NCBI GenBank assembly: GCA_010405405.1
Contig: MU004231.1
Location: forward strand, 3,156,401 to 3,220,400
Direction: 5' to 3'
DNA: 64,000 bases
Origin: Microthyrium microscopicum
Taxonomy: Eukaryota; Ascomycota; Dothideomycetes; Microthyriales; Microthyriaceae
Below, piece by piece: positions 1 through 34,100 of the stretch. Made by a program: the position numbers and the translations under genes. Numbering within the stretch: position 1 is the stretch's first letter; each line of letters opens with the position of its first letter. Under the pieces are notes generated by a model that had not been told where the DNA came from, did no database searches, and saw only the letters and a program-made list of their open reading frames with translations.

Positions 1-898
1 GTCAACAGATACGTCTAAATCAGCAGATGATGTATCTCAGGCCTTCACCAGACTTGCAGCAGTTGCTGGAACGTCCACTTGCCATCTGGCCATGAGCGCC
101 GAGCCTGTTTTCGTCAATGGAGTCTGGGGTCCTTATCGAGATGTCTTGATACCAGAATACTGGATGGCGGAAGGAGGACAGAGTGCAACAGGTGAACTAC
201 TGAAGCATGTTATCGAGACACACCCAGCGTATAACGATGCCGTTGAGGCAGCCAAAGCATCTGACTCCAACATCTACGACTTCCTCAACTCCCATCTTCA
301 AAAGACAGCAGAAAGCCAAAAAGCGCCAAACAAGAACGTCAGCTGGCTCGGACGACACATGTTCTTCTACGGCGATCTTTTCGGTAACCGATCTCCCATC
401 GCAGATCCAAACATGAAAGGTTCCATCGTCGGTCTCTCCTCCGACAAAAGCATCGATGCGTTAGCCCTCTTATACTATGGCGCCATGGAGTTTATCGCTC
501 TACAAACCAAACAAATAGTCGAGCAGATGAACGACTCTGGCCATGTAATACAAAGCATATTCATGAGTGGCTCTCTCTGCCAGAACGACATCCTGATGGA
601 TCTTATGAGTACTGCTTGCGATATGCCAGTACTCATACCCAAATACATTCACGCTGCCGTCGTCCATGGTGCCGCTATGCTGGGAGCTAAAGCCGCCAGT
701 CATGCAGATGGTGGCAAAGGAGAGCCGTTATGGGATATAATGGTTCGGATGAGCAAACCTGGTGATGCTGTGTATCCTAATAAGGATGCGGCAATGAAGA
801 AGCTGCTTGAGGCGAAATACAGGGTCTTTCTTGAGCAATGTGATCAGCAGCAAAAGTGGAGGAAGGATATCGATCAGGCTGTAGCTGATTGGAAATAA
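1..898 (+). CDS. FGGY-family carbohydrate kinase, 3' part (ribulokinase-like)
   Basis: C-terminal part of an ATP-dependent sugar kinase of the FGGY family, probably the fungal D-ribulokinase type; the 5' end lies before the window. The reading frame is open from base 2, so the ATG at 92 is internal. What shows it: A-G-T-S-T-C-H at about 74-94 matches the conserved nucleotide-binding segment of the second FGGY domain. It is followed by G-V-W-G-P-Y and Y-W-M-A-E-G-G-Q-S-A-T-G, typical of the ribulokinase branch. Near the C-terminus a G-S-L-C-Q-N-D motif and an A-A-V-V-H-G-A-A-M-L-G helix close the fold. The family phosphorylates free ketopentoses or related sugars in the cytosol. Family assignment is firm; substrate is inferred. 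No intron is needed in the visible part. The stop is TAA at 896-898. Confidence 0.88.
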   Translation, partial: STDTSKSADDVSQAFTRLAAVAGTSTCHLAMSAEPVFVNGVWGPYRDVLIPEYWMAEGGQSATGELLKHVIETHPAYNDAVEAAKASDSNIYDFLNSHLQKTAESQKAPNKNVSWLGRHMFFYGDLFGNRSPIADPNMKGSIVGLSSDKSIDALALLYYGAMEFIALQTKQIVEQMNDSGHVIQSIFMSGSLCQNDILMDLMSTACDMPVLIPKYIHAAVVHGAAMLGAKAASHADGGKGEPLWDIMVRMSKPGDAVYPNKDAAMKKLLEAKYRVFLEQCDQQQKWRKDIDQAVADWK

Positions 899-1393: not shown

Positions 1394-3778
1394 CTACGCA
1401 CTGTCTCGCTCTCGGAACTTTGCGCGCTGGTTTGGAGGGACATAATTATCGCGATCCGGTTTTCGGTGCTTGGGACGAGAAGATCTATTGGCAAGAGCGA
1501 GTTGCATAGAAGCATCCTCTAGTCGAACATCGCGAGACAAATTGCCAACTTGAGCAGATCGTTGCGGTCGTAGAGGCACTTGAGCAGAAGTGCCAGTGTC
1601 TCCACCATCGACTTGGACCGCTTGACCGCCATTTTGAGCGACAAGGCTATTGTCTTGAGCAGGTGGATGAACATTTGGCTGCATCAGTTCAGCAACGTCT
1701 GGGATAGTACAACCTTGATATGAGATGGTAAAGCCACGGGCTTGCAGTCCACGAATCTCTTCAGCCACTTGGTCGTCATCTTTCTCATCAGGGTGAGGAC
1801 CGTTGCGACTATGCAAATCATCGTTTCCAGCTGGTGCGCGTACATCTCGTCGATCCCGAGGAGTATAGTTATCTAGTGGTATCGACACCACTTGCTCCTG
1901 TTGAAGTATTCCTCGAGCAGGACGATTGTGGTTTCTAGTTGCTTGGCTTAGACGAAGTCGAGGAGTAGTATTGTTTCCTGGTGGTGTGGGCACCACTTGC
2001 TCCTGCTGAACTACTTCCTGAGCAGGACGATCACGATTTCCAACCCGCTGGCGGTTGTCTCGTCGATTGCGAGGCGCCACGTTGCCTACATGAGCTGGTG
2101 CTCCGAATCGCTGTCCATTTGTTGATTGGGCAGGTAGATCTGTACCGTGCGCTACTGGCGCAGTGTTGGCCTTTTGGGTAGTTGTTATATCGGTAGCCCA
2201 TTTCGATTTCGACATTTCATTGGCAACTCGAGACGTAGGAGGATTGTTTGCATCAACCACCGGAGTAGCCCATTTCGACGTCGATAATCCGTTTGAATCT
2301 CGAGTAACAGCGATGGTCGCAGGGAAAGTTTTTGCCTGCACCTTCGAGGTAGCCCATCTTGATGTTGAGACTCCGTTCGCAGCTTGAGTAAGATCGTCAG
2401 AAGAAGGAGGCGCATCTACAGCCTCTGGAGAAGCCAACTGAGTAGGAACGACTGTATCCTGAGCTTGTAAAGTGACTTTCGCCATTTCGACAGCAATGCC
2501 ATTTGCACCTTCAGAGGCAGCCATTGGGGCGAGCAGAGCCGTAGTCATGACCTGAGCCGATAGACAACTATTGGTCCCATCAGGCTTGGCAGTCTCTCCG
2601 CTGGTAATAGCCTCCTGGGTTGGAGGAGCCGTATTTTCGTTTGGTGTGCTATCATTGGCAGTTTCGACAGGTTTGCTAGCCTCACTCTCGGCGGGACGAC
2701 GGCCACTAACAGCGGGAGCTTCTTGACTTAGAGAATCCGGTTGCTCGCAAACATCGTTGCTAGTCGACATAACATGTCGAATGTCGTTACCATCAGAAAC
2801 TCCTTGAGTCACGGGATTAGGTTGACCATTGGTTTCGTCGGATGCTGGGAGATCAGTTTCGCCTGTAGCTTCCACTGGAGCGGAAGGAGTCATTACTTTA
2901 GCTGTTGTAGCAACAGTGACTGTTCCGATAGCCTTGCCAATCTCATTCTTCGTATCTTGTCCTTGGGGAGCAATAGATTTAGCCCGAGCTAGGTCGTCGA
3001 GGTAGCCCATCTCGAACGCCAACTCGGCCTCCTCTGCCCAGTCGATTGCCTGTGGTTCCATGCTTATTTGGGTAGCTACATTGTGAGGAAACTTATCAGA
3101 CGATGGTAGCTCTTGGGCGGGCGCCTCGGGATTTGCTTCGGCGGAAGGACTATCAATTGGAGGTGACTTCTGAGTACACGCCTCGATCGCAGCAGCCTTC
3201 TGTGCGGCCTGTCGAATTTCGCGATCTTTTGCCACCATTTCCGCAGGCATTAGAGACTTGTCTGCCCATTTAGAAGCAAATATCGAGAGATGGCCATCTC
3301 GAACACACAGGTCCAACGCGGCGGCCAGAGGGGCTCCTCCACGTGTTGTAGGCTCTACTGCAGCGGCGTGCTGGGTGACCAAAGGAGGTATCGCAGGTCC
3401 CATTGCCGATTGAGATGACCCATTATTTGGTCGAGGCTGGCGTTGGAGATTAGATCTGGCGTTGTTGTGGTTCTCCCCGTGGCGGGCACGATTGGTTTGG
3501 GCATTATCGTTGTTCTCGTTGCGGCGGCCGCGCTTGGCTTGGTCGTTGGCGTGATTTTCGTCGCGGCGACCACGATTTTGCTGGCTATGGGCATTATATT
3601 CGTTGCGGCGATCACGATTGGCTTGGCTATTGTTGTAGATCTCGTCGCGGCGAGCACGATCAGGTTGGCTATTAGCATTGTTCTCGTCGCGGCGACCGTG
3701 ATGGTGTTGGCTATTCGCGCTGTTGCCATCGCGGCGACGATTGTGCCAGACATCGCCGTTTTTACGACGCTCCTCCAT
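1394..3778 (-). CDS. Low-complexity protein, paralogue 1 of a tandem triplet (794 aa)
   Basis: Function unknown. A single coding exon follows a 5'-UTR intron. Residues 15-112 are seven tandem 14-residue repeats of type R-R-[DN]-E-N-x-A-N-S-Q-x-x-R-x. Residues ~125-195 are a core shared with the next two genes: G-P-A-x-P-P-L-V-T-x-H-A, then C-V-R-D-x-H-L-x-I-F-x-S-K-W-A-D-K and M-P-A-E-M-V-A-K-D-R-E-I. A Ser/Thr/Ala/Pro-rich middle carries three S-[RK]-W-A-T motifs at residues 473-477, 501-505 and 525-529. Residues ~584-650 hold two imperfect copies of a ~40-residue Q-E-Q-V-V-containing repeat. The tail reads N-Y-V-P-P-N-Q-R. There is no signal peptide or membrane segment, so it is probably intracellular and mostly disordered. 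The Y-V-P-P-x-x-R tail resembles a short motif found in RNA-binding and translation proteins such as Ded1/DDX3 and PYM; that link is a guess. Confidence 0.8.
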   Translation of the reverse strand: MEERRKNGDVWHNRRRDGNSANSQHHHGRRDENNANSQPDRARRDEIYNNSQANRDRRNEYNAHSQQNRGRRDENHANDQAKRGRRNENNDNAQTNRARHGENHNNARSNLQRQPRPNNGSSQSAMGPAIPPLVTQHAAAVEPTTRGGAPLAAALDLCVRDGHLSIFASKWADKSLMPAEMVAKDREIRQAAQKAAAIEACTQKSPPIDSPSAEANPEAPAQELPSSDKFPHNVATQISMEPQAIDWAEEAELAFEMGYLDDLARAKSIAPQGQDTKNEIGKAIGTVTVATTAKVMTPSAPVEATGETDLPASDETNGQPNPVTQGVSDGNDIRHVMSTSNDVCEQPDSLSQEAPAVSGRRPAESEASKPVETANDSTPNENTAPPTQEAITSGETAKPDGTNSCLSAQVMTTALLAPMAASEGANGIAVEMAKVTLQAQDTVVPTQLASPEAVDAPPSSDDLTQAANGVSTSRWATSKVQAKTFPATIAVTRDSNGLSTSKWATPVVDANNPPTSRVANEMSKSKWATDITTTQKANTAPVAHGTDLPAQSTNGQRFGAPAHVGNVAPRNRRDNRQRVGNRDRPAQEVVQQEQVVPTPPGNNTTPRLRLSQATRNHNRPARGILQQEQVVSIPLDNYTPRDRRDVRAPAGNDDLHSRNGPHPDEKDDDQVAEEIRGLQARGFTISYQGCTIPDVAELMQPNVHPPAQDNSLVAQNGGQAVQVDGGDTGTSAQVPLRPQRSAQVGNLSRDVRLEDASMQLALANRSSRPKHRKPDRDNYVPPNQRAKFRERDSA
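3443..3736 (-). repeat. Coding minisatellite, 7 x 42 bp
   Basis: Seven tandem 42 bp units encode the 14-residue R-R-[DN]-E-N repeats near the N-terminus of paralogue 1. Unit length is constant, so frame is kept. Neither neighbouring paralogue has this repeat. Confidence 0.85.
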
Positions 3779-3829
3779 CTTATTTCGTTAGTTTATTGTA
3801 CCATTTAGACACTCTTCGTGATTGCTTAC
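3779..3829 (-). other. 5'-UTR intron of paralogue 1 (51 nt)
   Basis: Read on the minus strand it starts GTAAGC, carries a perfect ACTAAC branch site and ends in AG directly before the ATG of 1394-3778. No ATG is seen in the short exon upstream, so I call it a leader intron. Paralogues 2 and 3 have the same arrangement. Confidence 0.7.
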
Positions 3830-4216
3830 TATTTGTGTTGGTTTGGTTTGCTGATAGTTGGTCGATTTGTTGGATGGCTTTGGATGAGCAATAGAGAGAA
3901 AATCGAACAGTGCTTAGTTTCGGGCGTGGGAAAAGGTTGGCGAGGAGAGAAATGAGGTCCAGGAAGCAGAAGAAGGCAAATAAGGTATATATAAGGACCG
4001 AGTAAGGTGCTAGCTCAGTAAGAGGTGCTCAGTGACTGTCACTTTCCTCACCTCACTGGCAATTTTCACGGGCTAAATGGCCAGCAACGAATAATAACAG
4101 GACTTCACTACCTTAAGAATGGTATGAGGTGCAATTGATACGTGTGGCGTTGTCAATATACCTCAATATCAAGCTGGAGGTGGAAATGAGCGAGTCTGAA
4201 CCATATACAGAAAGCG
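3830..4216 (-). promoter_or_regulatory. Promoter of paralogue 1 with duplicated upstream block
   Basis: A TATATATA stretch at ~3985-3993 is a likely TATA box. Farther upstream, ~4108-4216 holds elements in fixed order: CCTTAAG, TATGAGGTGCAATTGATA, CAATATCAAGCTGGAGGTGG, then CCATATACAGAAAGCGG. Matching elements at similar distance lie upstream of the next two paralogues. The remaining stretch 4217-4823, up to the 3' end of paralogue 2, shows no coding signal. Confidence 0.6.
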
Positions 4217-4823
4217 GAAACAACAACATTTTTGACAAGCGCTCTGCGCCTGTCACATAGGTGATGGTACCAAAGACTTATACGCTCGGTAGCGAAGGCA
4301 TCAGGTGCCTTGATCAACATTTTGATAGGACTGTTACAACAGATCTCGGACTTTCATATTGGTGCGAGCTAACAGTAATGCCTTCACGAAGGACTTATCA
4401 GATACCTTAACGATTACTAGTACATTCTTGACCTTTATACTTGGTTTGTTTGCGAAAGCAAATCATTAAAGTCTCATTATTTCTAGCAAAGCTCAGCAAA
4501 CCTTTCGGTTTGGCTACCTAGGTAGGTAGCTAGGTACAAACACTTTTTCTGGCTGATGCCCGGCTTGTTATAGCTGGCGATCTCAACTCATCACTTTTCT
4601 TTTTGCGGGAAGTGGACAAACCGGTAGGTTGACGTCCGTTTTCCAGTTCTACGTTCTTCTTTCCTCGTTCTTACTTGGGCAATGTTCATCCCTAACCTTT
4701 TTAAAAGTTCATACCCCACATTTTGCTTTCTCTACCGATCTATCCTCATGATGCTGAATAGCGATTCACGATCCACACGCTGATAACAGCGTGATCATCA
4801 TACCAGTTTTCGATTACCCAAGG

Positions 4824-6974
4824 CTATAAGGACTTTGTGCGCGTATGTCGAGGAATGTACACCTGGGCATCTGAGCTTGGCTGTCTAGGTTGGGAGTTTT
4901 GCGGATTTTGGACAGACTCAATGGCGACGTCTCGATTTGCACGGTGAGAAGTGGTATTGAAAGGTTCGGACGGAACTGGACGCGCCGCAGTTGCTTCTTG
5001 TGTAGAGCATTCCACCCGATGTAGATGATTGAGACGGCCCTGACCCTGATTGCCTAGACGATTTTGTTGAGCCTGGTTACGATGGTGTGCTGGACGACCT
5101 CTATGACCCTGATGATTTGTGAAAGATTGTTGGCTCTGATGGGTAGGGAAAGCTTGTTGTCCCTGATGACTAGGTTGGGCTTGTCGGCTCTGATGAATAT
5201 GGAAAGCCTGTTGTCCCTGGTGAGAAGTGTGACTTACTTGGCTCCGATGAGTTGGGAAGGCGTGTTGTCCCCGATGATCTGGCCAAGCTTGTTGTCCTTG
5301 ATGAGTTCGGGAAGCTTGTTGACCCCGACGAGTGGGCCGAGCTTGCTGACCATGATGAAATGGGGAGCTTTGCTGACCCTGGTGAGTCGGCCGAGCTTGC
5401 TGACCAAGATTTGGACGAGCTTGATGGCCTCCATGGATTGATTGAGCCTGCTCGTTGTGATTGAAGCGGGTTCGTTGGCCACTCTGATTTCGAAGAGCTA
5501 GAGGTTCTGCAGAAATAATGGCCGTAGCACTTATATCATGTGGTCGAGACTCCTGTCGCGTGTCACGATCATGAGGAGTCAGCATAGCGGAAAGAGTGCC
5601 CGAGGCAGAGTTTGGTGTAGCAGTCATACCTGGCCGTCCAGATTGCGCATTACGATGGTCAGCAGTGGTCATTATAGCAGGTGTGCTCGGCGCTTGTGCC
5701 CATCTCGAACTCTCTATACCTGCGGAGGCACGAGGAGCCACATCTTCGGCAGGGCTAGACACTGCCTGAGGCTTTTGGATGGTGACTAGAGCATCAAGTT
5801 TAGGCAAGTTTGCCCACCAAGGTGCTTGAACGCGATTCTCTTTGACAGTGACCGTGGCTGGTAATGCCGGCAGATGTGTCCACCAAGGGTCCTGCGCGAT
5901 GACTCGAGCTTGGAGCATGATGTCGTCAGAAGAACCAGGAGCCGCCTGATGTTCTATAGTAGAGCCTACTGAAGACATTTCGAGAGAGTCTGCCCATGAT
6001 GGTTGCTCTACGTTGGAAGACACTCGAGTAGTCGTGCTGTGAGATGGATCAGCTGCTGCTTGATCCTCCTGGGGAGCCGCCTGGCCTTGGACAGATGTTT
6101 CTTCGGGTGATGATGAAACACCGGAGAGGGTTGCAATAGGCGGCGCTTCTAGTTGTTGAATAGTCTTTATAGGTGGCAAGTCTGGGTCATCTGCCCATCT
6201 CGATTTTCCTACTTCATAGAGAGCTTGAGTCGTCTTTTCAACAGAAGTTTCAAGCGATGTTTCGTGCTTTTGACCATCAAGTTGAACTGGAGGAGCTATG
6301 CTAACAGCTGGAAGTAGATTGGTAGCACCCAGCATAACAGACGGCATAGTGGCAACAGGCTCTGGTCGTTTTTGGTTCTTCTCGCGCTGTTGCTTCACTT
6401 CACGGTCTTTGGCAGCTATCTCGGCTGGCATCTTTGACTTATCTGCATACTTGGAGTCCCATATTCCAAGATGTGGATTTCTAACGCATGAGTCCATTGT
6501 GTCTACCAAATCAGCTCCTGCTCGAGTAGTGGGTGGTGGTCCAATGGGAGCGTGGCCAGTGACCAGCGGAGGTCTCACTGGACCCAGTGCTGCTTCTGAG
6601 GTGGGATCTTGAGCTGGCGCTCGGTGGCTAAGATTAGCTTCGTTCAAGGTACGACGGAAAACATGGTCGTTGCGGCGGTAGGAATTTGCGCCGTTGAAAT
6701 TACTGCCTGTGTTATTGTTGCGAGGACCACGGCCGCGATGGTTGACATTTGTTTCTTGAGGGGCGGGAGGTACAGATGGTGCTCGGAAGGCAGGATTACG
6801 GTCGACAGACGTCTGGTCAGGTACATTGCCAATATGATTGGAGTTGTTGCTGTTTCGACTGAAGTTGTCGCCAATTTGATCGAAGCTGCCGTGGTTATTG
6901 GTGTTGTTGCGAGCACCGCGCCCACCATTACGCCTATATCGCCAGTGACCGTTATTGTTGTGGCCGCTCGCCAT
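4824..6974 (-). CDS. Low-complexity protein, paralogue 2 of a tandem triplet (716 aa)
   Basis: Function unknown. Residues 1-110 are rich in Asn, Gly and Arg (RGG/RNN-like). Residues ~128-200 are the triplet core: G-P-V-R-P-P-L-V-T-x-H-A-P, then C-V-R-N-P-H-L-G-I-W-D-S-K-Y-A-D-K-S-K and M-P-A-E-I-A-A-K-D-R-E-V. The middle carries tryptophan motifs at S-R-W-A (258-261), S-W-A-D (326-329), W-W (364-365 and 386-387) and S-R-W-A (423-426). Residues ~513-640 are a Gln/His-rich tract of ~10-residue units of type H-Q-G-Q-Q-A-R-P-T. The tail V-Y-I-P-R-H-T-R aligns with the tails of the other two. No membrane or secretion signal is seen. The start is the first ATG after the leader intron, in context AG-ATG-G as in the two other copies. 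Confidence 0.8.
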   Translation of the reverse strand: MASGHNNNGHWRYRRNGGRGARNNTNNHGSFDQIGDNFSRNSNNSNHIGNVPDQTSVDRNPAFRAPSVPPAPQETNVNHRGRGPRNNNTGSNFNGANSYRRNDHVFRRTLNEANLSHRAPAQDPTSEAALGPVRPPLVTGHAPIGPPPTTRAGADLVDTMDSCVRNPHLGIWDSKYADKSKMPAEIAAKDREVKQQREKNQKRPEPVATMPSVMLGATNLLPAVSIAPPVQLDGQKHETSLETSVEKTTQALYEVGKSRWADDPDLPPIKTIQQLEAPPIATLSGVSSSPEETSVQGQAAPQEDQAAADPSHSTTTRVSSNVEQPSWADSLEMSSVGSTIEHQAAPGSSDDIMLQARVIAQDPWWTHLPALPATVTVKENRVQAPWWANLPKLDALVTIQKPQAVSSPAEDVAPRASAGIESSRWAQAPSTPAIMTTADHRNAQSGRPGMTATPNSASGTLSAMLTPHDRDTRQESRPHDISATAIISAEPLALRNQSGQRTRFNHNEQAQSIHGGHQARPNLGQQARPTHQGQQSSPFHHGQQARPTRRGQQASRTHQGQQAWPDHRGQHAFPTHRSQVSHTSHQGQQAFHIHQSRQAQPSHQGQQAFPTHQSQQSFTNHQGHRGRPAHHRNQAQQNRLGNQGQGRLNHLHRVECSTQEATAARPVPSEPFNTTSHRANRDVAIESVQNPQNSQPRQPSSDAQVYIPRHTRTKSL
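5055..5438 (-). repeat. Coding repeat, ~13 imperfect units of ~30 bp
   Basis: Encodes the Gln/His-rich decapeptide tract (H-Q-G-Q-Q-A-x-P-T type) of paralogue 2. Units vary in sequence but hold the 10-residue period over most of the tract. Confidence 0.75.
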
Positions 6975-7021
6975 CTAGATTTTGTCCGTCTCCGGTATTT
7001 GGACTGAGAAAGATGACTTAC
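6975..7021 (-). other. 5'-UTR intron of paralogue 2 (47 nt)
   Basis: Minus-strand GTAAGT to CTAG; the acceptor AG touches the ATG at 6974. Position and design match the leader introns of paralogues 1 and 3. Confidence 0.65.
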
Positions 7022-7400
7022 TTTGCGTGTGAAGTATATTTGTGATGCGATGAGCGTGCGATGTGAGCTGATGCGGTTCAAGAATATAGAGTGGTTGAAG
7101 AGAGTATTGGCGGTGCGGAAAGGCGAGGAAGAGGTAGAGGAAGAAGAAGTGGAAGGCGAGGAGATAGAGAAAGGCCAAAGGATTATATACAAGGACGGCG
7201 ACTGTTAGAATCGAATCGAACCATCACTGAGAGGTTACTAGCGCCAATCTAACCGAACGAAAGCAAAACAAGCATAGGCTACCTTAAGAAACACATTCGG
7301 TCAATTGATATATAACGAGCGGCAGTAACGACTACTGAGAGCACCTCGATATCAGCCAGGAGGTGGCTGTTGTAGATGATCTAACCCATATACGGAAGCA
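7022..7400 (-). promoter_or_regulatory. Promoter of paralogue 2 with duplicated upstream block
   Basis: A TATATA core at ~7184-7189 lies in a setting (followed by AAGGAC) like that of copy 1. The upstream block spans ~7280-7400: ACCTTAAG, TCAATTGATATA, CTCGATATCAGCCAGGAGGTGG, CCATATACGGAAGC. It lacks the ATGAGGTGCAAT element present in copies 1 and 3. The stretch 7401-8132, up to the 3' end of paralogue 3, has short random ORFs but nothing I can call. Confidence 0.55.
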
Positions 7401-8132
7401 GTATTCGGTCAACAGATATTCTACTCTTGGCCATCCGCTAGACCACCTGGTACTCGCTGGATATTCACAATGAACCGAGACAAACCGGCTTATAGGCCTT
7501 GGAGTATGCTCGTAAGACGAGAATCACATTATCCTCCGAAGCAAAGGCAAAATGAACCAGCTTCGAAGCTCTCATAATGATGTACCAGGGATATATTCGC
7601 TCTTTATGCTCCTTGTATGTTTGCGAGCTACCACAGTTTGCGCTGTGGTCAACGACTTCTAGTGGCAACTGGTAGATAAGGCTATTGACAAACAATCTCC
7701 TCAAACTATGTCAGACTTTTCGACGATGGTCTTCTGTCTTGGGCAGGCAATGTTTAGGTTAGTGTTCGACTTGCATTCATTCGATAAGGTAGGTCACCAT
7801 ATAAAATATGTATCCCAAGTTATATCGCGCTCTAGGTATCATCCAAGGTTGAAGACTTTTGACTTATTATATCATTATTTCGTACTGCCCATGCCTCGGA
7901 ACGACTGGTTCTTTCAGTTGGTGCTTCGCTTCACCTTTTCATATTCATCACACTCTAGCCGTCTATCAAGAAGTAACCTTTGATTGCAAAGACGCAGTTG
8001 CACCATCCACGAAGTTCTAGCCTTCTCTTTACCTCCATCATCCGAGGTGCTCAGATCATTCTTCGTCTTCCATTCCATGCCAATCATTGTAGGCCAATCG
8101 CCATCCCTTCATCGAATCCTTTCCCCTTGTCA

Positions 8133-9668
8133 CTACTTCTCTTCCTCTCGAGTCTGTGGAGGCATTTTCGGAGGAACGTAGACTGAAGCATTCGGTCTAC
8201 CTTGATTCTGTCGTCGACCTCCTGCCACAGGACCAGCTAACGCACCTTCACCTTGACCAGGAGCAGGATTTGAGTTGGCGTTCATGTTACGACGGTGAGG
8301 AGGTGGTGTCAGACGTCCCTGGCGATTTGTTTGGCGGGAGCGACCATAATTTGTAGTCTGAGATGGGTGGTTTGGCACTCGCGCAACGGCCGTCATAGGA
8401 GCGTTGGCATGAGGCTGAGCCATGTGAGGAGCTCGAGGCTGACGCTGCTGGCCTACTGCTTGGGCATGACGAGAAGTATTCACAGGCCGTAATTGGTTGT
8501 TGCGCTGATCTCGAGAGGTGTTTCTAGTGCCTTGAGTCAGATCGCTAGAATGAGCGGGTTGTGTATGCGGCGGCTGGGTAAAGCCTGCGTTGTTGCGAGG
8601 CTGGAAATGATAATCAGCGCCGTTTCGACGATGGAAGTGATTGTTGGCGTTCGTTGCAGGAGTTGCAGCTGCATGTCGTGAGCGCTGTTGCATTCCACGG
8701 TTCTTGTCGACAGTAACGGTAGGCGCATTTGCCCATCTAGACGCGGCGAGGCCAGTGGGACCTTGAGCAACAGGACCTTGAGTAACGGGACCTTGAGCAA
8801 TGGGACCTTGAGCAACGGGACCTTGAGCAGGCAAATCGAGTAAGGAGTCCGGAGGTTTGATGTCGGAATCCGCAGTAGCATCTGCCCCTCGCGAAGTCGG
8901 GACAAAAGGCGCAGCTTGAGCAGATAAGTTGCCAGTATAGAGAGCGAAGATCGAGTCCGATTCGATAGGTTCGTCCGACCATCTGAAAGATGCGGCACGG
9001 GAGGATGCGTGCACCGTCTCTCTACCCGAGACGCCAGGAACGTTGATGGTCGGCTCTTTGGTCTCGTCCGCTAAGCTCAAAGCAGCAATATCAGGGGAAA
9101 CTACAGCCGAGTCCTGATCGAAGGATCCAATCTGTGTCTGTGGCTCTGTAGAAGTCACATTGGCAGAGCTAGCTTCCGACTGAGATGACTTAGTAACGTC
9201 GACGAGAGGCGCGAGAGAAGCAGTTGGCTCAAGAGAAGCAACTGGTCTTAGAGAAGCAGTTGGGTCTGTGGGAGCTACAGGGTCCTTTGCAGCGACTGAT
9301 TCTTTGGGAACGAGTGGATCTGCTGGAACGACTGGATCTGTTGAAGTGGCGGACGCAGCCAGTTTCTTCGCTCGCTCCTGCTGAATCTCGCGGTCTTTGG
9401 CTACCATCTCCGCCGGCATCTTAGTCTTGTCGGCATACCTAGAGGCGAATATGCCTAGATGCGGGTCGCGCACACAGTTGTCCAAAGTCTCCGTCAAGGA
9501 CTCTCCTGTACGGATAGTTGGCGGAGGACCGGGTGGTGCGTGCTGGGTCACCAGAGGGGGCGTGGCGGGCCCCATGGTTGGTCGCGTATTTGGAGCTGGT
9601 TGATGATTTGAGTTGTCGGGTCGTTTCCAGTTGCGGCGGGTTGGCTTCTTGGTACTACGGTCTTCCAT
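8133..9668 (-). CDS. Low-complexity protein, paralogue 3 of a tandem triplet (511 aa)
   Basis: Function unknown; the shortest copy. The core is at residues ~31-100: G-P-A-T-P-P-L-V-T-Q-H-A-P-P-G-P-P-P, then C-V-R-D-P-H-L-G-I-F-A-S-R-Y-A-D-K-T-K and M-P-A-E-M-V-A-K-D-R-E-I-Q-Q. A Pro/Ala/Ser-rich middle follows, with F-R-W-S-D at 228-232, an AQGPV pentapeptide array at 281-305 and S-R-W-A-N at 310-314. The C-terminal third is basic and rich in Gln, Asn and Arg, ending V-Y-V-P-P-K. No repeat class is shared with copies 1 and 2 apart from the tryptophan motif. It is likely intracellular and disordered outside the core. Confidence 0.8.
   Translation of the reverse strand: MEDRSTKKPTRRNWKRPDNSNHQPAPNTRPTMGPATPPLVTQHAPPGPPPTIRTGESLTETLDNCVRDPHLGIFASRYADKTKMPAEMVAKDREIQQERAKKLAASATSTDPVVPADPLVPKESVAAKDPVAPTDPTASLRPVASLEPTASLAPLVDVTKSSQSEASSANVTSTEPQTQIGSFDQDSAVVSPDIAALSLADETKEPTINVPGVSGRETVHASSRAASFRWSDEPIESDSIFALYTGNLSAQAAPFVPTSRGADATADSDIKPPDSLLDLPAQGPVAQGPIAQGPVTQGPVAQGPTGLAASRWANAPTVTVDKNRGMQQRSRHAAATPATNANNHFHRRNGADYHFQPRNNAGFTQPPHTQPAHSSDLTQGTRNTSRDQRNNQLRPVNTSRHAQAVGQQRQPRAPHMAQPHANAPMTAVARVPNHPSQTTNYGRSRQTNRQGRLTPPPHRRNMNANSNPAPGQGEGALAGPVAGGRRQNQGRPNASVYVPPKMPPQTREEEK
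8754..8828 (-). repeat. Coding repeat, 5 x 15 bp
   Basis: Five tandem 15 bp units encode A-Q-G-P-[VIT] pentapeptides, residues 281-305 of paralogue 3. Confidence 0.85.
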
Positions 9669-9715
9669 CTAGTTTTGTCAATCTGAGTTGTCAAGAGACG
9701 GCTTTGGGCGCTTAC
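9669..9715 (-). other. 5'-UTR intron of paralogue 3 (47 nt)
   Basis: Minus-strand GTAAGC to CTAG directly before the ATG at 9668, with an ATTGACA branch-like site 9 nt before the AG. Same architecture as copies 1 and 2. Confidence 0.65.
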
Positions 9716-10084
9716 TATACGGATACGCAATATTTAGAACTTTCTGATCTGTGAATGCTATAAAGCGTTTAATCGAAGTCGGCGATATCAAAAGCTGGCG
9801 GAAAGGGTTGAAGAGGTGGTTGAAGGTGTTGAAGAGAAAGCGAAAAGTAAAGTAAGAGAGAAAGTCAAGCGGAGTATATAGAGGCTAAGAGAGGTAGGTC
9901 ACTGACAACTTTCGAGCCACAATGACCCAGAGCTAACCAAATGAAGCAAAGTCAGAACTGTTCACCTTAAGCAGAGTATGAGGTGCAATGAGGTAAATTG
10001 AGGTGCCGCGAGTGCGGTTATATAAGCCTGGATACTGGCATGGAGGTGGCCGATATATTCAGTCTGAGCCATGTCAAGAAAGCG
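9716..10084 (-). promoter_or_regulatory. Promoter of paralogue 3 with duplicated upstream block
   Basis: A TATATA core lies at ~9885-9890. The upstream block at ~9961-10084 has TTCACCTTAAG, TATGAGGTGCAATGAGG, GGCATGGAGGTGGC and AGTCTGAGCCAT in the same order as copy 1. Confidence 0.55.
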
Positions 10085-11120
10085 ATATTTACCCAGCAAG
10101 AGCTCACGTAGATGAGTTAGCTAGGTAAGTCTCATCGTAGGACTCCCACGAAATGCAAAGAAAACGATGTACTTGTGGACACCTGCAAGAGCAATATATG
10201 GTATGAATGGCATTGTCACTCTGGTTTATTGGGAAAGAAGGATCATCACAGATGCTTTGACGAGTATCCGCATGAGAGATTAAGTAAATAATCGCACCTC
10301 TCTGTGAAGGGAAACTGTTCAGTCTAGGTAAATCTCTAAGGTAGTCTTCATGTTTTCATGTCATAGCAAGACATACTTAGTTTGCGTCGTCTCAGCAACA
10401 TCGAGCAATTGATATGGTGTCGCTGAACGCAAACATTCTCTTCAAAGTATGCTAGACATCTCAAGGATATTCCTCTGTCTCAAGCAAACAGGTTCTCCGG
10501 TCCTTGTTCGACATGCTCATTCATTAGGTAAGTCCCCATTCATAAACTCTTCCGCTGTATAAGCCCGATGTGGGACATGTTTCCATATCCTGCCAATGTG
10601 ACATAATGCACGTAAGAACGCCACATGCCTTTCGAGGGAATGGTCAGGGAAGGATCGGGGGAGGAACTGGCCCTGATATCGGTGTGGATCATCGCTATTC
10701 GTCAGAGGAGCTTCGTAGGCCGAGAACGTGGTAGCTGGAGCTGCTGTTGTGGGCAAGACATGACAGCGAGAGCAATCGTTAGTATGAGGCCCTGGGAGGC
10801 GAGTATGCATGTCAAAGCGGCGTGGATATTGACACTTTATGATACAAAAAACTGTGTCTGTAACTTGTCTGCCATTTTAGATGTAGCGAAGTACGATCAC
10901 AGGCTTGCGGCCTTTCAGAACATCAGTCCATTATACAAGACTCGTGCTTCAGTTCTAAAGTGAATTATCCGTGATCACAAAAAAGGAGGCGCACATACGA
11001 TTTCCAAACAGGTGAGTATTTCGCATTCTTCGTGCTAGCAAATAACGAGCTCCGTCCCAAAACGTCCCGTTGCAATACATAAAAGAGTTTAGTGCCATTA
11101 ATATTACGTCCGTCCTACAA
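10085..11120. other. Intergenic, no supported gene
   Basis: A 97-codon minus-strand ORF (10517-10810) has a plausible mixed composition but no recognised motif and no clear splice context, so I do not call it. The rest shows nothing. Confidence 0.4.
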
Positions 11121-11887
11121 CTAAGCAAACACATGCACTGTTGTGCCTCCAGACTTCTTCCAGGTAGCAACAGTGACACCGCACTTGCCGCACTTGTGGA
11201 CAACGTCCTTGAAACCGTCTATTAGGTATGGAATGCATGGCATGAGGAGTACGAGGCAGAAACCGAGAGCCCAGAGACTAGAAAGACAGTTAGTTTATGC
11301 GCTACCACTTTATGATATGGTGTATCTTACTGTGTGCAGTCTCCACTGACGCGAGAAGTGTTGGTCATGCCTCTTTGCTTGCAAGATGGGCAATCTATGG
11401 GTGCGCTGGATTCTGAAAGAGTCTGGATTGGCACAGCGCTTTGGAAAACGGAGGTCTGTGGCTGCATCATCACTGGCTGTTGTTGCATCATGTGAGGTTG
11501 CTGGTACGCCATTTGTGGTTGTTGCTGCTGCTGCATCATGGGCTGCTGGTATTGTTGTTGTGGGTGCATCATGGGAGCACCAGTTGGATGACCTTGCATA
11601 GGTTGCTGAGCATACATAGGCTGCTGGCCTTGGGGATAGCCTTGTGGTTGCATTTGAGGGTGCTGCATCTGTGGTGGGTATTGGGGTTGCTGGGCCATAG
11701 GCTGTGGAGTGCCTGGGCCGACCTCAGTGACATATGCTGGTGGTTCTGGCGATGATTGTTAGTGATGATTCTCGCGATAATTTGCGACAGCGCGCAAGAC
11801 CCCTATTCAGCCTGATGAGAGTTTGAAAGTGAAATGGATGTCTTGCGCGTGCGATCATTTAGGAATATACTTACGAGCTTTCTCCAT
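11121..11887 (-). CDS. LITAF-domain zinc protein (194 aa)
   Basis: Small LITAF/SIMPLE-type protein; the family sits on the cytosolic face of endosomal or lysosomal membranes. Exons (minus strand): 11875-11887, 11331-11745, 11121-11277. The first exon is only 13 nt (ATG GAG AAA GCT C). The introns are GTAAGT..CAG and GTAAGA..CTAG with a CTAAC branch site. The N-terminus has P-P-A-Y and a long Gln/Met/Pro-rich stretch. The LITAF domain follows: C-P-S-C (~123-126), G-D-C-T-H, the hydrophobic insert L-W-A-L-G-F-C-L-V-L-L-M-P-C-I-P-Y, then K-D-V-V-H-K-C-G-K-C-G. The paired CxxC knuckles flanking a membrane-dipping segment are the family signature. The 3' exon is essential because it carries the second knuckle. 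Confidence 0.88.
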
Positions 11888-27484: not shown

Positions 27485-28740
27485 TTAAATCCTAAGCCAG
27501 TTCGTGGTGGAATGTGTGGTGGTAGGGGCACATTTTGGTGTTTCGCCGCAGCTAATCCCTGAGCTGTGAGGGCTTCAAAAAATGGTATTTTTGGCTATTT
27601 AATAAAGAGGATTAGGGGCGCCCCCTAAAATTAGTTATAATATTAGCTACTAACAGCTAATATTAGCTGTTAGTAGTTAAAATAGCTACTATCTGAAAAT
27701 GCGTTATTTTCAGCTACTGTGAGATAATCTAGCTCTTTGAAAATATAAAGGGTTAGATAACGTGATCTAGCACGTGACCATCACGTGACACGGCACGTGA
27801 TCACAATATTAAGATCTAGTAATTCCTAGATCTTAATATTACGTGTTGAATACTATGGATTTAAATAGCTCAAGTAGCTGCTGTAGGATAATCTAGCCCT
27901 TTAGATGTGAAGGGTTAGATAACGTGATCTAGCACGTGACCATCACGTGACACGGCACGTGATCACAATATTAAGATCTAGTAATTCCTAGATCTTAATA
28001 TTACGTGTTGAATACTGTGGATTCAAATAGCTTAAGTAGCTGCTGTGGGATAATCTAGCCCTTTAGATATAAAGGGCTAGATTTGAAGCTAGTCCTAGAT
28101 TGGTCTAGCTTCACGGACTTAAGGCTCTTAAGTCCTAAGCTACTTTGTGGTGGAATGTGTGGTAGTAGGGGCACATTTTAGTGTTTCGCCGCAGCTAATT
28201 CCTAAGCTGTGAGGGCTTCAGGGGATCGTATTTTTGGCCTTTTTAAAAAGGGGATTTTAGGCTAATAGTAGCTATAATATTAGTTACTAGTAGCTAATAT
28301 TAGCTGTTAGTAGCTAAAATAGCTACTATCTAAAAATGCGTTATTTTCAGCTACTGTGAGATAATCTAGCTCTTTGAAAATATAAAGGGTTAGATAAACG
28401 TGATCTAGCACGTGATCATTACGTAACAGGGCACGTGACGGCACGTGATTACAACATTAAGATCTAGTAATTCCTAGATCTTAATATTGCGTGTTAAATA
28501 CTATAGATTTAAATAGCTCAAGTAGCTACTGTGGGATAATCTAGCCCTTTAAATGTGAAGGGCTAGATTTGAAGCTAGTCCTAGATTGGTCTAGCTTCAC
28601 GGACTTAAGGCTCTTAAGTCCTAAGCTACTTTGTGGTGGAATATGTAGTAGTAGAAACACATTTTGGTGTTTCGCTGTAGCTAATCCCTAAGCTATAAGG
28701 GCTTTAAGAGATTGTATTTTTGGCTACTTTATAAAAAAGA
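27485..28740 (+). repeat. Long direct repeats with CACGTG palindromes
   Basis: Three direct copies starting at ~27485, 28130 and 28614 share a segment with GTGGTGGAATGTG and TTTCGCCGCAGC. Copy 1 is internally duplicated by a ~162 bp unit, and copy 3 is truncated. The inner unit carries clustered CACGTG hexamers and a GATCTAG..CTAGATC palindrome. Confidence 0.8.
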
Positions 28741-29275
28741 TAAGAATTTAGCTAGGATTCTATGAGATTAGTGATTATGCCTACTAATTTTTATAGTAAT
28801 TCTAGTTAATTCTTAAGTAAATTCTGTTCTTAGCTATAGTTTAGAGATATATTTACTAAGTCTTAAATTTTTAGAGATTAGATATATTTCTACTAGATTT
28901 AGCGTTAGCTAGACTAGTTACTATAAACTAGACCTAAGTTTAGGATAGTTTATTATTAAGTTGGATTTTATATATAGCTTATAGTTAGTATAATTATAAA
29001 GCTTTATATAAGAAGTAAATAAGAATCTACTATCTAGCTAGTCTAATAATATTAGCTACTAGATTACCTCTAAAACTCTTTTAGAGTCTTTAGTAAAGAA
29101 TATAATATATTTCTTAGTTTACTCTTTTAGGGTGGCTTAGAAACGAATATTTATATATTTTTAAAGAAATACTTTTTATATTAAAAAGTTATTTTCTTTT
29201 TATTAAATTAATTTATCTTTATTCTATTTTCTTTATTATATTATTAGATAATATAATAAATATTAATTTACTCTA

Positions 29276-29498
29276 CTACCTAAGTAAGTAGTAAAACTAC
29301 TAGAAGGTTAAAGTAGTTTAGTTCTACTTAGATAGTTAGTCTACCTAAGTAAGTAGTAAAACTGCTAGAAGGTTAAAGTAGTTTAGTTCTACTTGGATAG
29401 TTTAAAGTAGTTTAGTTCTACTTAGATAGTTAGTCTACCTAAGTAAGTAGTAAAACTACTAGATGGTTAAAGTAGTTTAGTTCTACTTAGATAGTTTA
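29276..29498 (+). repeat. 65 bp tandem repeat, ~3.5 copies
   Basis: Units begin CTACCTAAGTAAGTAG and end CTTAGATAGTTAGT. Copies start at 29276 and 29341, then a partial copy and a further copy from 29435. Confidence 0.85.
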
Positions 29499-32389
29499 TA
29501 CTTTGTTTTAGGTATACTTTATATATTTTATAAAGTAGAACTTTAATAAATTATATTTTAGTCCTTTCTACTTACGTTAGGTAATATTTATTTCATGTTA
29601 AAATATAGGTAAATATTTCTAAATAAGAGAGACTAATAGAATATAATACTAAGCCAAAATTAAATAAAAAGCGTTATTAGGGCGGTATAGCATATAGGGC
29701 GGCATATTAATCTAATTTATATATATTTACTATAAAAGATAGCGAATTAGAGCTAGAGTAGTCACTAGACGTTATTTATAGCTTCTATAAGAATATCTTG
29801 CTTATCCTTATTAAAATAGTAATAAAGATTGGGGCGGCCTATCTTTTAAAAAATATAGTTTAATTATTTATTTCTATTTATCTTATTAGTTACTAGATAT
29901 ATACTTTCTATATTAAGTATCTTTTAATAAAAATATATAGACGATAAACGTATATTATTATTGTTAGGATAATTAGTCTATATAGCTTTCAGCCTATTAG
30001 TAGATATATTAATCTTTAGTATAAAAGCTTTTATAGATTAAGTAGGAGAGTGGTAAGCCCCTTATTAACTTATTTCTTATAGAGTAAAGCTAGTTTTAAT
30101 ATAAGGGTAAGCTACTTTCTAAAAGGGAAGTATTATACTTAGAGAAAGGGGATATTTAGTCTTTTAATAGTGTATCTATTTAGTATTTATTACTACTACG
30201 TAGTACTTTATATTAGTAGTAATAAAGCTAATCTTAAGGTCTTACGTGCAGAAGTTAGTAATATAAAGGCTCTTTTTATTAAGCTTAGTAATAAATACTA
30301 TATAATTATTACTTTAAAAGCTATAAGTACCTTTGTCCCTTTTTACTCTTAAACTTTGCTACTTTAAACCCTTCTATAAGTTAGGTATAAATTATTACTT
30401 TAATCTATCTAGAACCTATAGCGTGTACTAACTTAGGAGTACTATAATAGATAAGACTTACATATAAGTATACTAAGACGTTTACTAACTCTAGGATTAA
30501 TTTAATAAGCTCTTCTTAAATAATGATTTATTTAGTATAATAGGCTAAGGTATAGATCTTTATAGAAGAAGGTAAAAGCCTAAGATAGCTTAAGCTAACT
30601 TGTACTTTTAAGAATAGTTATACTATGCTTACTTTAAATTATTCTTACGTTCTTAGTAAGTTAGAGAGCTAATGAAAATAACTATATAATTAATCTCTAT
30701 TACTAGTAATAGTAGATAAAGTTAGATTCTAGTAGAGTTCGTTAACCCTAGAGATTTTCTAGACTACTAATTAGCTCTCTTAAAGCGACTAGCCTATCTA
30801 GGTTAGGCTTAGATTCCTAAACGCTAGATTATTATGCGTGCTCCTTTAACTTCTAAAGCTTTATACTCTAGACTAGATTTGCTATTAATTATTATCCTAG
30901 ATAGCTTCTAAATATCTTTCTCTTTTATGGATTTCTTATCTTTACCTTTGCCCTAGCTATTCCCTCCTAGCTTCCCTTTGGCTATTCCCCTTTAGCTATT
31001 CCCCTTTGGCTATTCCCCTTTAGCTATTCTCTCTAGCTTTACCTTGTTTCTTAGCTCTTCCTTTCCCTTTTCTTTCCTAGTCTCTTTATCTTCTATTATT
31101 CTTTGTAGATTTGCTAGTAGTTAAACTATAAAATGTAGACTATAGAATCTTGTGGCACTGTTTATAGGTATGCCTAGCTATACTAAAAAAATGATTTATT
31201 AATAGTATATGCTAGATATAACCTATAATTATACCTCCTTATATAATTTCTTAGTCAGAGAAGAGTATTACTTAGTTCTTAGAGCTACTACTAATAAAGG
31301 AAGTCTATTTTAAGATAGTATATTGCTTTCTATGACTCCTTCTATAAATAGAGATATAGTATACTGTAGATAAGTTTGCTAATATAATTAGTAACTAATT
31401 AAACTAGCTTTAAAGGCAAATATATAAGTTATTCTATAGATAACTAAAAAAGATTCTCGTACTTCATGAAAATGAGATAAAAGACTTAATATATAGAGAA
31501 CTCTAACTTTTAGTAGTAGTTATTAATATGCAAAATCTATTCCTCTACTTTTATTAATTACTTCTTTAGAATAGGCTTCTTTGTAATTAACTTCTTTGCT
31601 ATAGGCGTCTTTATAGCCTAAGGATCCTTCTTTTTATAAGGTTCCCTTAGTCCTCTCTTCTAAATAACTTTTATAATAGGCTAAAGATTTGGATTAAACT
31701 TTACCTAATTAGTAGGACTTGCTAATTAAGGATTTTGTTACTAAGAAGGATTAGGTTTCTAAGACTAATTATCCTTCTTCTTGCTACGACTCTTCTTTAG
31801 GACTTAAATAGAAGAATAGTAATTTATGGGGGGAGAAAGTCTGTTCTAATAGTTAAAGTTTGCTTAACTCTAATATTAAGGAATAGGTTGGTGCTACCCT
31901 TCTTAAGTTTGATCTGTTAGTTAAGCTTTATACTAAGTTGAAAAAGTAGAAATAGATTAAGTATAAATAGTCTAATATTAATTCTAAGACAAAGAGTAAG
32001 ACTAAGACGGAAGTAGAGATTAAGGATAAGCAGTCTGAAACGGAAGCTAAAATAGAGGCTAAAATAGAGTCTAAACTAGAGCTATAGCCATAGAAGGATC
32101 CATGTATTATAAAGGCTCTAATTCTATATACTTAGAGTCAAATTTAAAGTTAGAAGAAGAATTAGCTTCTTCTTCTTGTTAATTTAAGTAATTATTAACC
32201 TCTTCTTTATTAGCCTAGTTAGCGTAAAATAAAGGAATACTCTTTTCTTTTTTAATCTTTATCTCCTTAGGAGGATTTAAATCGTTAGAATTGTTCCTTA
32301 GTAGTGGCATTAATCTCTAATCTAACAAATTAATATTACTAGTAGCTATTCCTTTTACTAATATAAGATAATCTTCTAAGCTATCTAGA

Positions 32390-34100
32390 GTAATGTTGAT
32401 TTTAGTATAAGTGAAAGAACGCTTCATAATGTTATATTTTTGGTAAGTTTGTTAAGTATGAGCCTTTTCCTACGCGTAAGTAACTATTTTAGTTAAGATG
32501 ATACGTTTTTTGCTTACAATAAGATTGTAAAAATCCTTATTTAGATACGCTTTAAAAGCAATTTCGTCTTAATATTCCTAAAGGTACTTCTTAACAACTT
32601 AGTTAATACTAACGTCTAAAGGTTAGATCTTAGCTATTAGTCTAGGGATAATAACTATAAGAATAATGCTATATGCACAATAGTGAGCCTTAACTTCTTT
32701 AGTTATATAAAACGCTATAGAGTTAATAATAACCTTTAACGTTAGCTAAGAAGGTATAGGCTACATTAGTAAGTAAATTTAGCTAGTAGAACTGCTATTA
32801 GACTTTGTAAGTTTAGTAGTAGTAAAGACATAAGCTTCATTACCTTAGGAATTAAAGCCCGTACCACGTTCTAAAGGATAAGTTAGAATAAAAATAAATT
32901 TAAAGAAGAGTATCCTTACCTTAAGCTTATTAGTAATATTGTTCTTGCTTAAGTTGGTGCCACTTAGAATCTACATAAGGAACCTATTAATCTTCAATCT
33001 ATAGAATAATTAGGAATAAATTTATCTAGGTAGTTTTGTTAAACTTTATAATAACGCGTTTATCGTAAAGAAATCCCTTAGCAACTTCGTTTTAACCGCA
33101 ATATTTAGTAGGTAATCCATAGAATATAATCAACGGTTTTATAACTATCTTCTTGTTAGCAAAGGCCCCTAAATGTACCGTCATTAATCGTTTCTCTTGT
33201 CTGCTTCTAGAAATAGCATAAAATATATTGTTTAATCCTACTAGGTAATAGGTGTAGCTAGGTATAGTTTCATATACGTAAGGAGTTTTATCGCTATTTA
33301 TAATAAAATGAGTAGGGATTTAGGTATGTACCTCTACTCTATAGCCTATAGGAGTAACTAACCTAGTATAGCATTGCTAATAAAAAGAAATAAAGCGATT
33401 GATAAATTGTTTCTAATCCTAAGGAAGGTTTTGGCCTATATAGGTTATCTTTCGATAAGAAATCTAGTAGCGTTTTTAAAACCTTATAAGCTAGCTTCTT
33501 AAAAAGTAAGGTCTTTAAGGAATAGCCTATCTAGATGCTATAAGGGAAGCATATACTAGAAGCCATTGTTAAGTAGCCTCTCTAAAAAACTAGCTAGATG
33601 AAATTTTTTGGTTCTCTACAAGCTAAATAATGAACTAGTAATAGATTATAGATTCTAAGTCTAGAAAGTGTTCTCGTTCTATATTAAGTTCTATTCTCCT
33701 TAGGTTGCTAGTAATATATTTAGCCTTATCTCACTTTTTCTACTAGCGACAGACTATAGATTTGTTAACCAAAAAGTAGTTACTTACTTCCTTAAATGTT
33801 GTATATTGTTATAATTGCTTAGTTACTAGATCTTTAAAGTATCCAAGCTCTAGACGTAAATGTGGAATTTGCCTTTTGTATAGCTAAAGGACGTAGTGTT
33901 TATGAATTATCTATCCTAGGATTTTAGTCCGTATAGTAATACTATATATCTTGAAAGCTCTTTTTTTTAGGGCAGAGCAGTTAAATTTACTATCTTAACT
34001 ACCAAATTCTTTAGTAGTCTTTTTATATTTAATAAAGTAACTTTGCCTTACCTAAAGGTTAGCCTTTTTAGTATCTATTAATAGATTTTGCCTTAGAATT
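32390..34100 (-). pseudogene. Transposase remnant of the large element
   Basis: Edges are approximate. Minus-strand fragments resemble a CENP-B/pogo-type transposase: an N-terminal part around 33.4-33.9 kb with a helix-turn-helix-like, charged composition, and DDE-domain parts near 32.6-33.1 kb including P-L-D-V-S-I-N at 32601-32621. Stops are dense throughout, so no product is possible. Confidence 0.65.

What the first reader, a model, noticed from the sequence alone, without database searches (positions are those of the whole stretch)
1394..9668. Tandem triplet of fast-changing disordered proteins built around one conserved ~70-residue core
Seen: three same-strand genes (794, 716 and 511 aa) share G-P-x-x-P-P-L-V-T-x-H-A, C-V-R-[DN]-x-H-L-x-I and M-P-A-E-[MI]-x-A-K-D-R-E-[IV] in one block, and a related C-terminal tail. 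Everything between is low complexity and does not align well. I recognise no named family. Tandem duplication with core kept and linkers diverging suggests selection on the core and on flexible spacing. This is the best candidate here for an undescribed gene family.
Basis: partly seen in the sequence, partly recalled or inferred. Interest (0 to 1): 0.75.

Follow-up and report, generated by a model that had tools for sequence, protein, structure and literature searches.

The report
Three co-regulated disordered fungal adaptor genes
A fungus carries three old, side-by-side copies of an unnamed gene whose floppy proteins share one conserved 70-residue block and short repeated motifs that resemble docking sites of protein-synthesis factors, so they may help control which messages are translated.

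Summary
Three minus-strand genes (794, 716, 511 aa) share a ~70-residue core (35 of 76 alignment columns invariant; 58% and 65% identity to copy 1) inside otherwise poorly alignable, mostly disordered sequence. No Pfam or PDB family matches the core. No fungal proteome was available, so the family's spread is untested.

I add four things. (1) The duplicates are ancient: synonymous sites are saturated, yet the core is kept (dN 0.30-0.38, against 1.03-1.14 elsewhere). (2) The 465 bp upstream of the three starts are still homologous, the downstream DNA is not, and each start abuts a putative 47-51-nt 5'UTR intron, so the genes are probably expressed and co-regulated. (3) The core holds one copy of a motif, S-[RK]-[WY]-A, repeated elsewhere in each protein; the shared tail is Y-[VI]-P-[PR]. 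(4) Copy 3 has a PAM2-like peptide (poly(A)-binding-protein docking).

Best explanation: a family of disordered mRNP/translation adaptors whose motifs resemble those of the Ded1/DDX3 N-terminus. The function is inferred from short motifs only (confidence 0.35). 'Selection on flexible spacing' is not supported: the stretch before the core differs in length, and each copy expanded its own repeat.

The parts
1394..3778 (-). copy 1 coding sequence, 794 aa, stop TAG
4824..6974 (-). copy 2 coding sequence, 716 aa, stop TAG
8133..9668 (-). copy 3 coding sequence, 511 aa, stop TAG
3191..3400 (-). conserved core of copy 1 (GPAIPPLVT...AKDREI...)
6378..6590 (-). conserved core of copy 2
9366..9575 (-). 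conserved core of copy 3
2351..2371 (-). copy 1 free Trp motif VSTSRWA
2267..2287 (-). copy 1 free Trp motif LSTSKWA
2195..2215 (-). copy 1 free Trp motif MSKSKWA
6192..6212 (-). copy 2 free Trp motif VGKSRWA (followed by DD)
5697..5717 (-). copy 2 free Trp motif IESSRWA
8730..8750 (-). copy 3 free Trp motif LAASRWA
8895..8933 (-). copy 3 PAM2-like peptide GNLSAQAAPFVPT (aa 246-258)
   Evidence: regex written after seeing the peptide; Pfam PF07145 PAM2, 14.9 bits, E 0.021 on a 25-aa fragment, below the 20-bit cut-off
1424..1444 (-). copy 1 C-terminal YVPPNQR
4839..4859 (-). copy 2 C-terminal YIPRHTR
8160..8180 (-). copy 3 C-terminal YVPPKMP (no Arg at position 7)
3779..3829 (-). putative 5'UTR intron of copy 1, 51 nt, GTAAG...CTAAC...AAG, ends at the ATG
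6975..7021 (-). putative 5'UTR intron of copy 2, 47 nt, ends at the ATG
9669..9715 (-). putative 5'UTR intron of copy 3, 47 nt, ends at the ATG
3779..4240 (-). conserved upstream region of copy 1; holds ATTG(C)ACC-N-CTTAAGGT at 4110-4135
6975..7436 (-). conserved upstream region of copy 2; same element, low end at 7281
9669..10130 (-). conserved upstream region of copy 3; same element, low end at 9964
3487..3738 (-). 42-bp tandem repeat, 6.0 copies, in the N-flank of copy 1 (N/R-rich)
5107..5410 (-). 27-bp tandem repeat in the C-half of copy 2 (H/Q-rich)
   Evidence: several overlapping rows
8757..8829 (-). 15-bp tandem repeat (GPVAQ-type), 4.9 copies, in copy 3

Best explanation
A tandem family of three anciently duplicated, probably still co-regulated genes for intracellular, mostly disordered adaptor proteins of an ascomycete. 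Shown: the three ORFs, the conserved core, the repeated S-[RK]-[WY]-A motif with one copy inside each core, the short Y-[VI]-P-[PR] tail, the conserved upstream DNA and the purifying selection on the core. Inferred: the core (two predicted helices around the motif) is the main docking module for one partner, and the free Trp motifs add multivalency. The N/Q/R/H-rich flanks bind RNA or favour condensates. The protein works on mRNPs or translation initiation: the tail resembles the Ded1/DDX3 YVPPHLR element (eIF4A/eIF4E contacts), the S-[RK]-W-A-D form resembles the invariant Ded1/DDX3 Trp element (eIF4E contact in yeast), and the PAM2-like peptide of copy 3 would tether Pab1. Copies 1 and 2 lack PAM2, so the paralogues would differ in which mRNP they join. 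The partner, the RNA binding and the direction of the effect (activate or repress) are not shown.
For: Core and selection. Long form of the motif, [GE][ILVM]xx[SN][RK][WY]A: 8 sites (2 in cores, 6 free), all in these 3 proteins, none elsewhere in 100,773 residues of six-frame stop-free fragments of 15 aa or more (pattern fitted to the sites; shuffle mean <= 0.0003 per protein). Tail. PAM2-like peptide: the only L[NS]xxAxxFxP in those fragments, reached in 0.0008 of shuffles, and PF07145 is the only Pfam family reported for its 25-aa fragment (14.9 bits, E 0.021); 6 other fragments of the three proteins gave no family. Literature, passages only: PAM2 consensus xxLNxxAxEFxP and its MLLE partner (PMC4466420, PMC9249222). 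Ded1 residues 21-27 contribute to eIF4A binding with R27 key, and segment 83-89 with invariant W88 to eIF4E binding (PMC7343385; letters around Y21 and W88 read by me from its primer list). Mouse Ddx3x has GNSRWCD (PMC4468907). The significant human hits for YxPPx[ILMVA][KR] are almost all translation-related and judged mostly convergent (PMC3510515). Expression: upstream 465 bp has 151 invariant columns against a mean of 71 and maximum of 91 in 60 shuffles; downstream 400 bp 61 against 59 in 40 shuffles.
Against: All functional clues are short motifs, noticed by eye and then scored with patterns fitted to them, so the probabilities are not corrected for that choice. A looser PAM2 pattern has 5 six-frame hits and is met by 3.7% of shuffles of copy 3. 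The PAM2-like peptide lacks the consensus Asn and Glu, scores below Pfam's cut-off, and is not reported when the whole protein is scanned (E <= 1). It is absent from copies 1 and 2. The tail matches YxPPxx[KR] only in copy 1, without the hydrophobic residue before Arg; two other six-frame fragments also match that pattern, and copy 3 lacks the Arg that is key in Ded1. The Ded1-like pattern RWxDxK has no match in the window. From the papers: mutating the motif in eIF2A did not abolish eIF4E binding, Ded1 Y21A had no significant effect on eIF4A binding in vitro, and the PAM2 motif of Upa1 is dispensable for its function. RGG repeats are scarce: 1, 0 and 0. No RNA-binding domain. Expression itself was not observed.
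Confidence: 0.35

Rival explanations
1. Disordered adaptor of another process (transcription, chromatin, cytoskeleton, vesicle traffic): the core binds a partner unrelated to mRNA and the Ded1-like and PAM2-like resemblances are coincidence.
For: The core, the only strongly conserved part, has no reported match in Pfam or PDB at E <= 10 (HMMER's filters drop most weak matches), so it carries no functional label. PAM2-like peptide in one copy of three only. Low RGG content.
Against: Three separate motif types point the same way, and the stretch before the core is N/Q/R/H-rich (0.54, 0.41 and 0.34 of its residues).
Confidence: 0.4
2. Fast-evolving family with a role in hyphal biology, stress or self-recognition in which the linkers evolve by repeat expansion and copy number varies; the core is a generic oligomerisation helix pair and the whole protein acts as a condensate former.
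For: Different tandem repeats in each copy; two helices predicted in the core (H28-37, H56-69; mean pLDDT 71, pTM 0.33).
Against: The invariant core positions include Pro, His and others outside the predicted helices, more than a bare oligomerisation helix would need (inference). Self-association was not tested.
Confidence: 0.15
3. Not functional genes: spurious ORFs or decaying repeats.
For: No relative found outside the window in the collections available.
Against: Core dN well below saturated dS, conserved upstream DNA, ORFs longer than the longest run in each of 300 simulations. The collections searched are viral and prokaryotic, so missing hits mean little.
Confidence: 0.02

Closest known systems
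N-terminal disordered region of Ded1/DDX3 helicases (eIF4A- and eIF4E-binding motifs)
   Same: A Y-[VI]-P-[PR] element (YVPPNQR in copy 1 against Ded1 YVPPHLR) and an S-[RK]-W-A-D element in copies 1 and 2 (against mouse Ddx3x SRWCD, yeast RWID) in mostly disordered sequence.
   Different: No helicase domain. The tail element is C-terminal instead of N-terminal. The Trp motif is repeated and one copy sits in a new conserved core.
PAM2-containing Pab1 partners (such as Upa1)
   Same: Copy 3 has L-S-x-x-A-x-x-F-x-P, matching Leu, Ala, Phe and Pro of xxLNxxAxEFxP.
   Different: Asn and Glu of the consensus replaced; no Pfam domain found in the protein, whereas Upa1 has FYVE, RING and ankyrin repeats; copies 1 and 2 lack it.
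Proteins with YxPPx[ILMVA][KR] (eIF2A, eIF3g, TDRD3, NOM1, DDX3)
   Same: Short YxPP element in otherwise unrelated proteins.
   Different: YxPPxx[KR] is met in copy 1 only, and there with Gln where the pattern asks for ILMVA.

Membership tests
Ded1/DDX3 DEAD-box helicases | DEAD/helicase-C domains | tested here: not met
   No Pfam family in any of the three proteins at E <= 1
Ded1/DDX3 DEAD-box helicases | YVPPHLR-type element | tested here: inconclusive
   YVPPNQR, YIPRHTR, YVPPKMP at the C-termini
Ded1/DDX3 DEAD-box helicases | invariant Trp element (yeast RWIDGK, mouse SRWCD) | tested here: inconclusive
   SKWAD in copy 1 and SRWAD in copy 2 are the only S[RK]WxD in the six-frame fragments; RWxDxK has none
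PAM2 proteins (PF07145) | xxLNxxAxEFxP | tested here: inconclusive
   Copy 3: 4 of the 6 specified consensus letters; 14.9 bits against a cut-off of 20
PAM2 proteins (PF07145) | binding to MLLE of Pab1 | not testable with these tools
   needs a peptide binding assay
RGG-motif RNA-binding proteins | clustered RGG repeats | tested here: not met
   RGG counts 1, 0, 0
Any Pfam or PDB family for the core, NCBIfam for the whole proteins | profile or sequence match | tested here: not met
   Three cores: Pfam none reported at E <= 10; core profile: PDB none at E <= 10. Whole proteins: NCBIfam (prokaryotic) none at E <= 1
Conserved fungal gene family | orthologues in other fungi | not testable with these tools

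The most novel reading that the evidence does not exclude
An undescribed ascomycete family of co-regulated, helicase-free proteins that convergently carry Ded1-N-terminus-like eIF4A/eIF4E docking elements plus, in one paralogue, a Pab1-docking PAM2, forming a small tandem set of competing translation or mRNP regulators in which repeat-driven linker turnover diversifies the copies while the docking core stays fixed.
Probability: 0.15. Interest if true: 0.65.

Novelty: new variant of a known kind. Interest (0 to 1): 0.4.

Why it matters
If right, filamentous fungi hold a family of short-motif translation adaptors that domain databases miss because most of the protein is disordered. The three paralogues, with one core, related promoters and three unrelated linkers, would be a natural experiment on what a disordered linker must keep. 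Even if the function is wrong, the core is a good candidate for a new domain family.

Tried and rejected
Family searches: whole proteins gave no Pfam family at E <= 1, no NCBIfam family at E <= 1 and no PDB chain at E <= 1 with their profile; the core gave none in Pfam or PDB at E <= 10. The tool says HMMER's filters drop most matches above about 0.1, so the high limits do not list all weak matches. PDB hits of the copy 1 tail to MBD5 and MBD6 (3 rows, E 0.34-0.59) are chance-level and rejected. PDB search of the PAM2-like region found nothing.

Homologues outside the window: two scans each of viral and genome contigs had 12, 78, 30 and 594 pattern matches and 0 confirmed relatives. This says little, as these are viral and prokaryotic collections.

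Literature: six core peptides in 0 papers of the held library. Six S[RK][WY]A-type strings: 29 papers, of which the 25 listed look unrelated by title. Four or more of 'intrinsically disordered, tandem duplicat, lineage-specific, ascomycete, PAM2': 2 papers, neither on such a family by title and start of abstract. Five or more of 'PAM2, Ded1, Pab1, filamentous fung, translation, disordered': 9 papers, 8 listed, none on such a family by title and start of abstract. Searches served to find papers on the known motifs. Seven papers were seen as passages only; none was read whole.

Considered and rejected: secreted effector (the first 40 residues are polar and basic with no hydrophobic stretch, by eye); retroelement gag (no zinc knuckle by eye; 5, 2 and 1 Cys; no Pfam hit); spurious ORFs. 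A degenerate PAM2 in copies 1 and 2 was looked for by regex and by Pfam on five fragments: none. Fold search of the core model was not run because its confidence is low (pTM 0.33).

Weak points of controls: among 60 sets of random window stretches the highest count of invariant columns was 137 (mean 65), close to the observed 151, perhaps because two draws overlapped; I did not check. Without the last 60 bases the observed count is 118 of 451 columns, and no shuffle was made for that version. The dimer-block shuffle is simple. The alignment outside the core is unreliable, so dN there is rough. The motif and promoter patterns were fitted to the sites that they count.

Full report
Setting. The window is from a filamentous ascomycete-type genome, judged by its genes: choline kinase, a membrane transport protein (PF03547), a protein kinase, the CPSF73 endonuclease, a TAF4-like fragment (below cut-off), a sideroflexin and a Zn2Cys6 regulator, and an AT-rich island at 28-34 kb with the signature of repeat-induced point mutation (TA/AT 1.72, (CA+TG)/(AC+GT) 0.42, GC 0.288, against 0.67-0.73 and 1.23-1.32 in three gene-rich stretches; a milder stretch at 12-14 kb has 1.27 and 0.91). 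The reading of that bias as RIP is recalled knowledge. No whole genome is held for it and the species was not identified.

Observation. Three uninterrupted minus-strand ORFs of 794, 716 and 511 codons stand in a row. Their stop-free lengths exceed the longest run in each of 300 second-order Markov simulations of the region (maximum 408). They share one block, GPxxPPLVTxHA...DxCVR[DN]xHLxI[FW]xS[KR][WY]ADK[ST]xMPAE[MI]xAKDRE[IV], with 35 invariant columns of 76. Elsewhere they are 20-26% identical per pair. The core profile finds no fourth copy in the six frames of the window.

Age and selection. Synonymous differences are saturated in core and rest (pS 0.72-0.81), while dN is 0.30-0.38 in the core and 1.03-1.14 in what can be aligned outside it (Nei-Gojobori; the outside alignment is itself unreliable). 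So the duplications are old and the core is under strong purifying selection. The linkers have diverged partly by expansion of different short tandem repeats in each copy. Nothing shows that linker length is selected: the part before the core is 126, 129 and 32 residues.

The 465 bp ending at the three start codons align with 151 invariant columns; 60 shuffles gave a mean of 71 and a maximum of 91, and 60 sets of random window stretches a mean of 65 and a maximum of 137 (perhaps overlapping draws, not checked). Without the last 60 bases the count is 118. The 400 bp after the stops give 61 against a mean of 59 in 40 shuffles. One element, ATTG(C)ACC-N5-12-CTTAAGGT, a pattern written from the alignment, occurs three times in 64 kb, each about 300-330 bp upstream of one of the starts. 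Copies 2 and 3 share a further 120-bp block, 71% identical, about 0.7-0.9 kb upstream. Each gene also has GTAAG...AG ending exactly at the ATG, giving putative 5'UTR introns of 51, 47 and 47 nt; none of the three has an ATG in the 150 nt before the donor; GTAAG occurs 0.74 times per kb and strand in the window. The branch site is a perfect CTAAC in copy 1 and weaker in the others (consensus recalled). As the DNA downstream has lost its similarity, the kept upstream DNA argues that the three genes are used and controlled together.

Motif architecture. Nine [SN][RK][WY]A sites, all with Ser, lie in the three proteins (4, 3, 2; shuffle means 0.017-0.027); one in each protein is part of the core. 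The longer pattern [GE][ILVM]xx[SN][RK][WY]A has 8 sites, all in these proteins, in 100,773 residues of six-frame fragments (the pattern was fitted to the sites). The ninth, in the core of copy 1, misses it because Ser replaces Gly. Of 19 tryptophans, 7 are in S[RK]WA (counted from the listing). All three proteins have one Trp close to a basic run near the N-terminus (position 11, 11 and 14) and Y-[VI]-P-[PR] starting 16, 11 and 15 residues from the C-terminus. Copy 3 alone has GNLSAQAAPFVPT, which resembles PAM2; Pfam PF07145 scores a 25-aa fragment at 14.9 bits (E 0.021; cut-off 20), while a scan of the whole protein reported nothing at E <= 1. A looser PAM2 pattern is met by 3.7% of shuffles of copy 3 and by 5 sites in six frames.

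Structure. The core alone is predicted with two helices, residues 28-37 and 56-69, mean pLDDT 71, pTM 0.33. In full-length copy 3 the residues above pLDDT 50 lie mainly within 36-108; 449 of 511 are below. Both models rest on three sequences.

Mechanism proposed. The protein is a disordered adaptor: core as main docking site, Trp motifs as repeated weaker sites, polar flanks for RNA or condensates. The direction 'mRNP and translation' comes from three resemblances. PAM2 peptides bind the MLLE domain of poly(A)-binding protein (PMC4466420, PMC9249222; passages). In yeast Ded1, residues 21-27 (YVPPHLR) contribute to eIF4A binding and the segment with invariant W88 to eIF4E binding (PMC7343385, passages; PMC11917139, passage). 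The YxPPx[ILMVA][KR] pattern is, among significant human hits, almost confined to translation-related proteins and seems to have arisen convergently (PMC3510515, passages). Each resemblance is weak alone: PAM2 is in one copy, YxPPxx[KR] in one, and S[RK]WxD in two. The same papers hold cautions: mutating the motif in eIF2A did not abolish eIF4E binding, Y21A in Ded1 did not significantly lower eIF4A binding in vitro, and the PAM2 motif of Upa1 is dispensable for its function. I give the reading 0.35, and 0.40 to an adaptor of some other process.

Novelty. I found no description: Pfam and PDB report no model or chain for the core, NCBIfam none for the whole proteins, and six core peptides occur in no paper of the held library. 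Since no fungal proteome could be searched, unnamed hypothetical proteins of this family very likely exist in relatives (my expectation, not a result). It is best called an undescribed family of a known kind: multi-motif disordered adaptors.

Noticed in passing
28000-34000: AT-rich island (GC 0.288) with RIP-type dinucleotide bias (TA/AT 1.72; (CA+TG)/(AC+GT) 0.42). The stretch with the three paralogues shows no such bias (0.73; 1.23), so they escaped RIP or had diverged before it could act.
   Followed up: partly
43507-44112 (-): 201-aa ORF with a basic N-terminus and a C-terminal SNRWAYGAAMS, the only NRWA in the six-frame listing. Only a weak DUF6573 match, E 0.2. Possibly an unrelated hypothetical.
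   Followed up: partly
5775-5912 (-): Copy 2 has a short internal duplication, PWWTHLPALPATVTV and PWWANLPKLDALVTI, near the place aligned with the PAM2-like peptide of copy 3; no Pfam match for either fragment.
   Followed up: partly
7689-7805 and 10430-10546 (-): A 120-bp block, 71% identical (E 4e-8), about 0.7-0.9 kb upstream of copies 2 and 3; not seen for copy 1.
   Followed up: no
2-892 (+): End of an FGGY-family carbohydrate kinase gene (PF02782, E 1.9e-59) next to the cluster.
   Followed up: no
11330-11758 (-): Q/P-rich protein with a partial LITAF-like zinc ribbon (PF10601, E 0.00067, below cut-off); probably one exon of an intron-containing gene.
   Followed up: no
62537-63999 (-): Two long ORFs that look by eye like parts of a multi-pass membrane protein running off the window; no Pfam match for the 263-aa part at E <= 10.
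   Followed up: no
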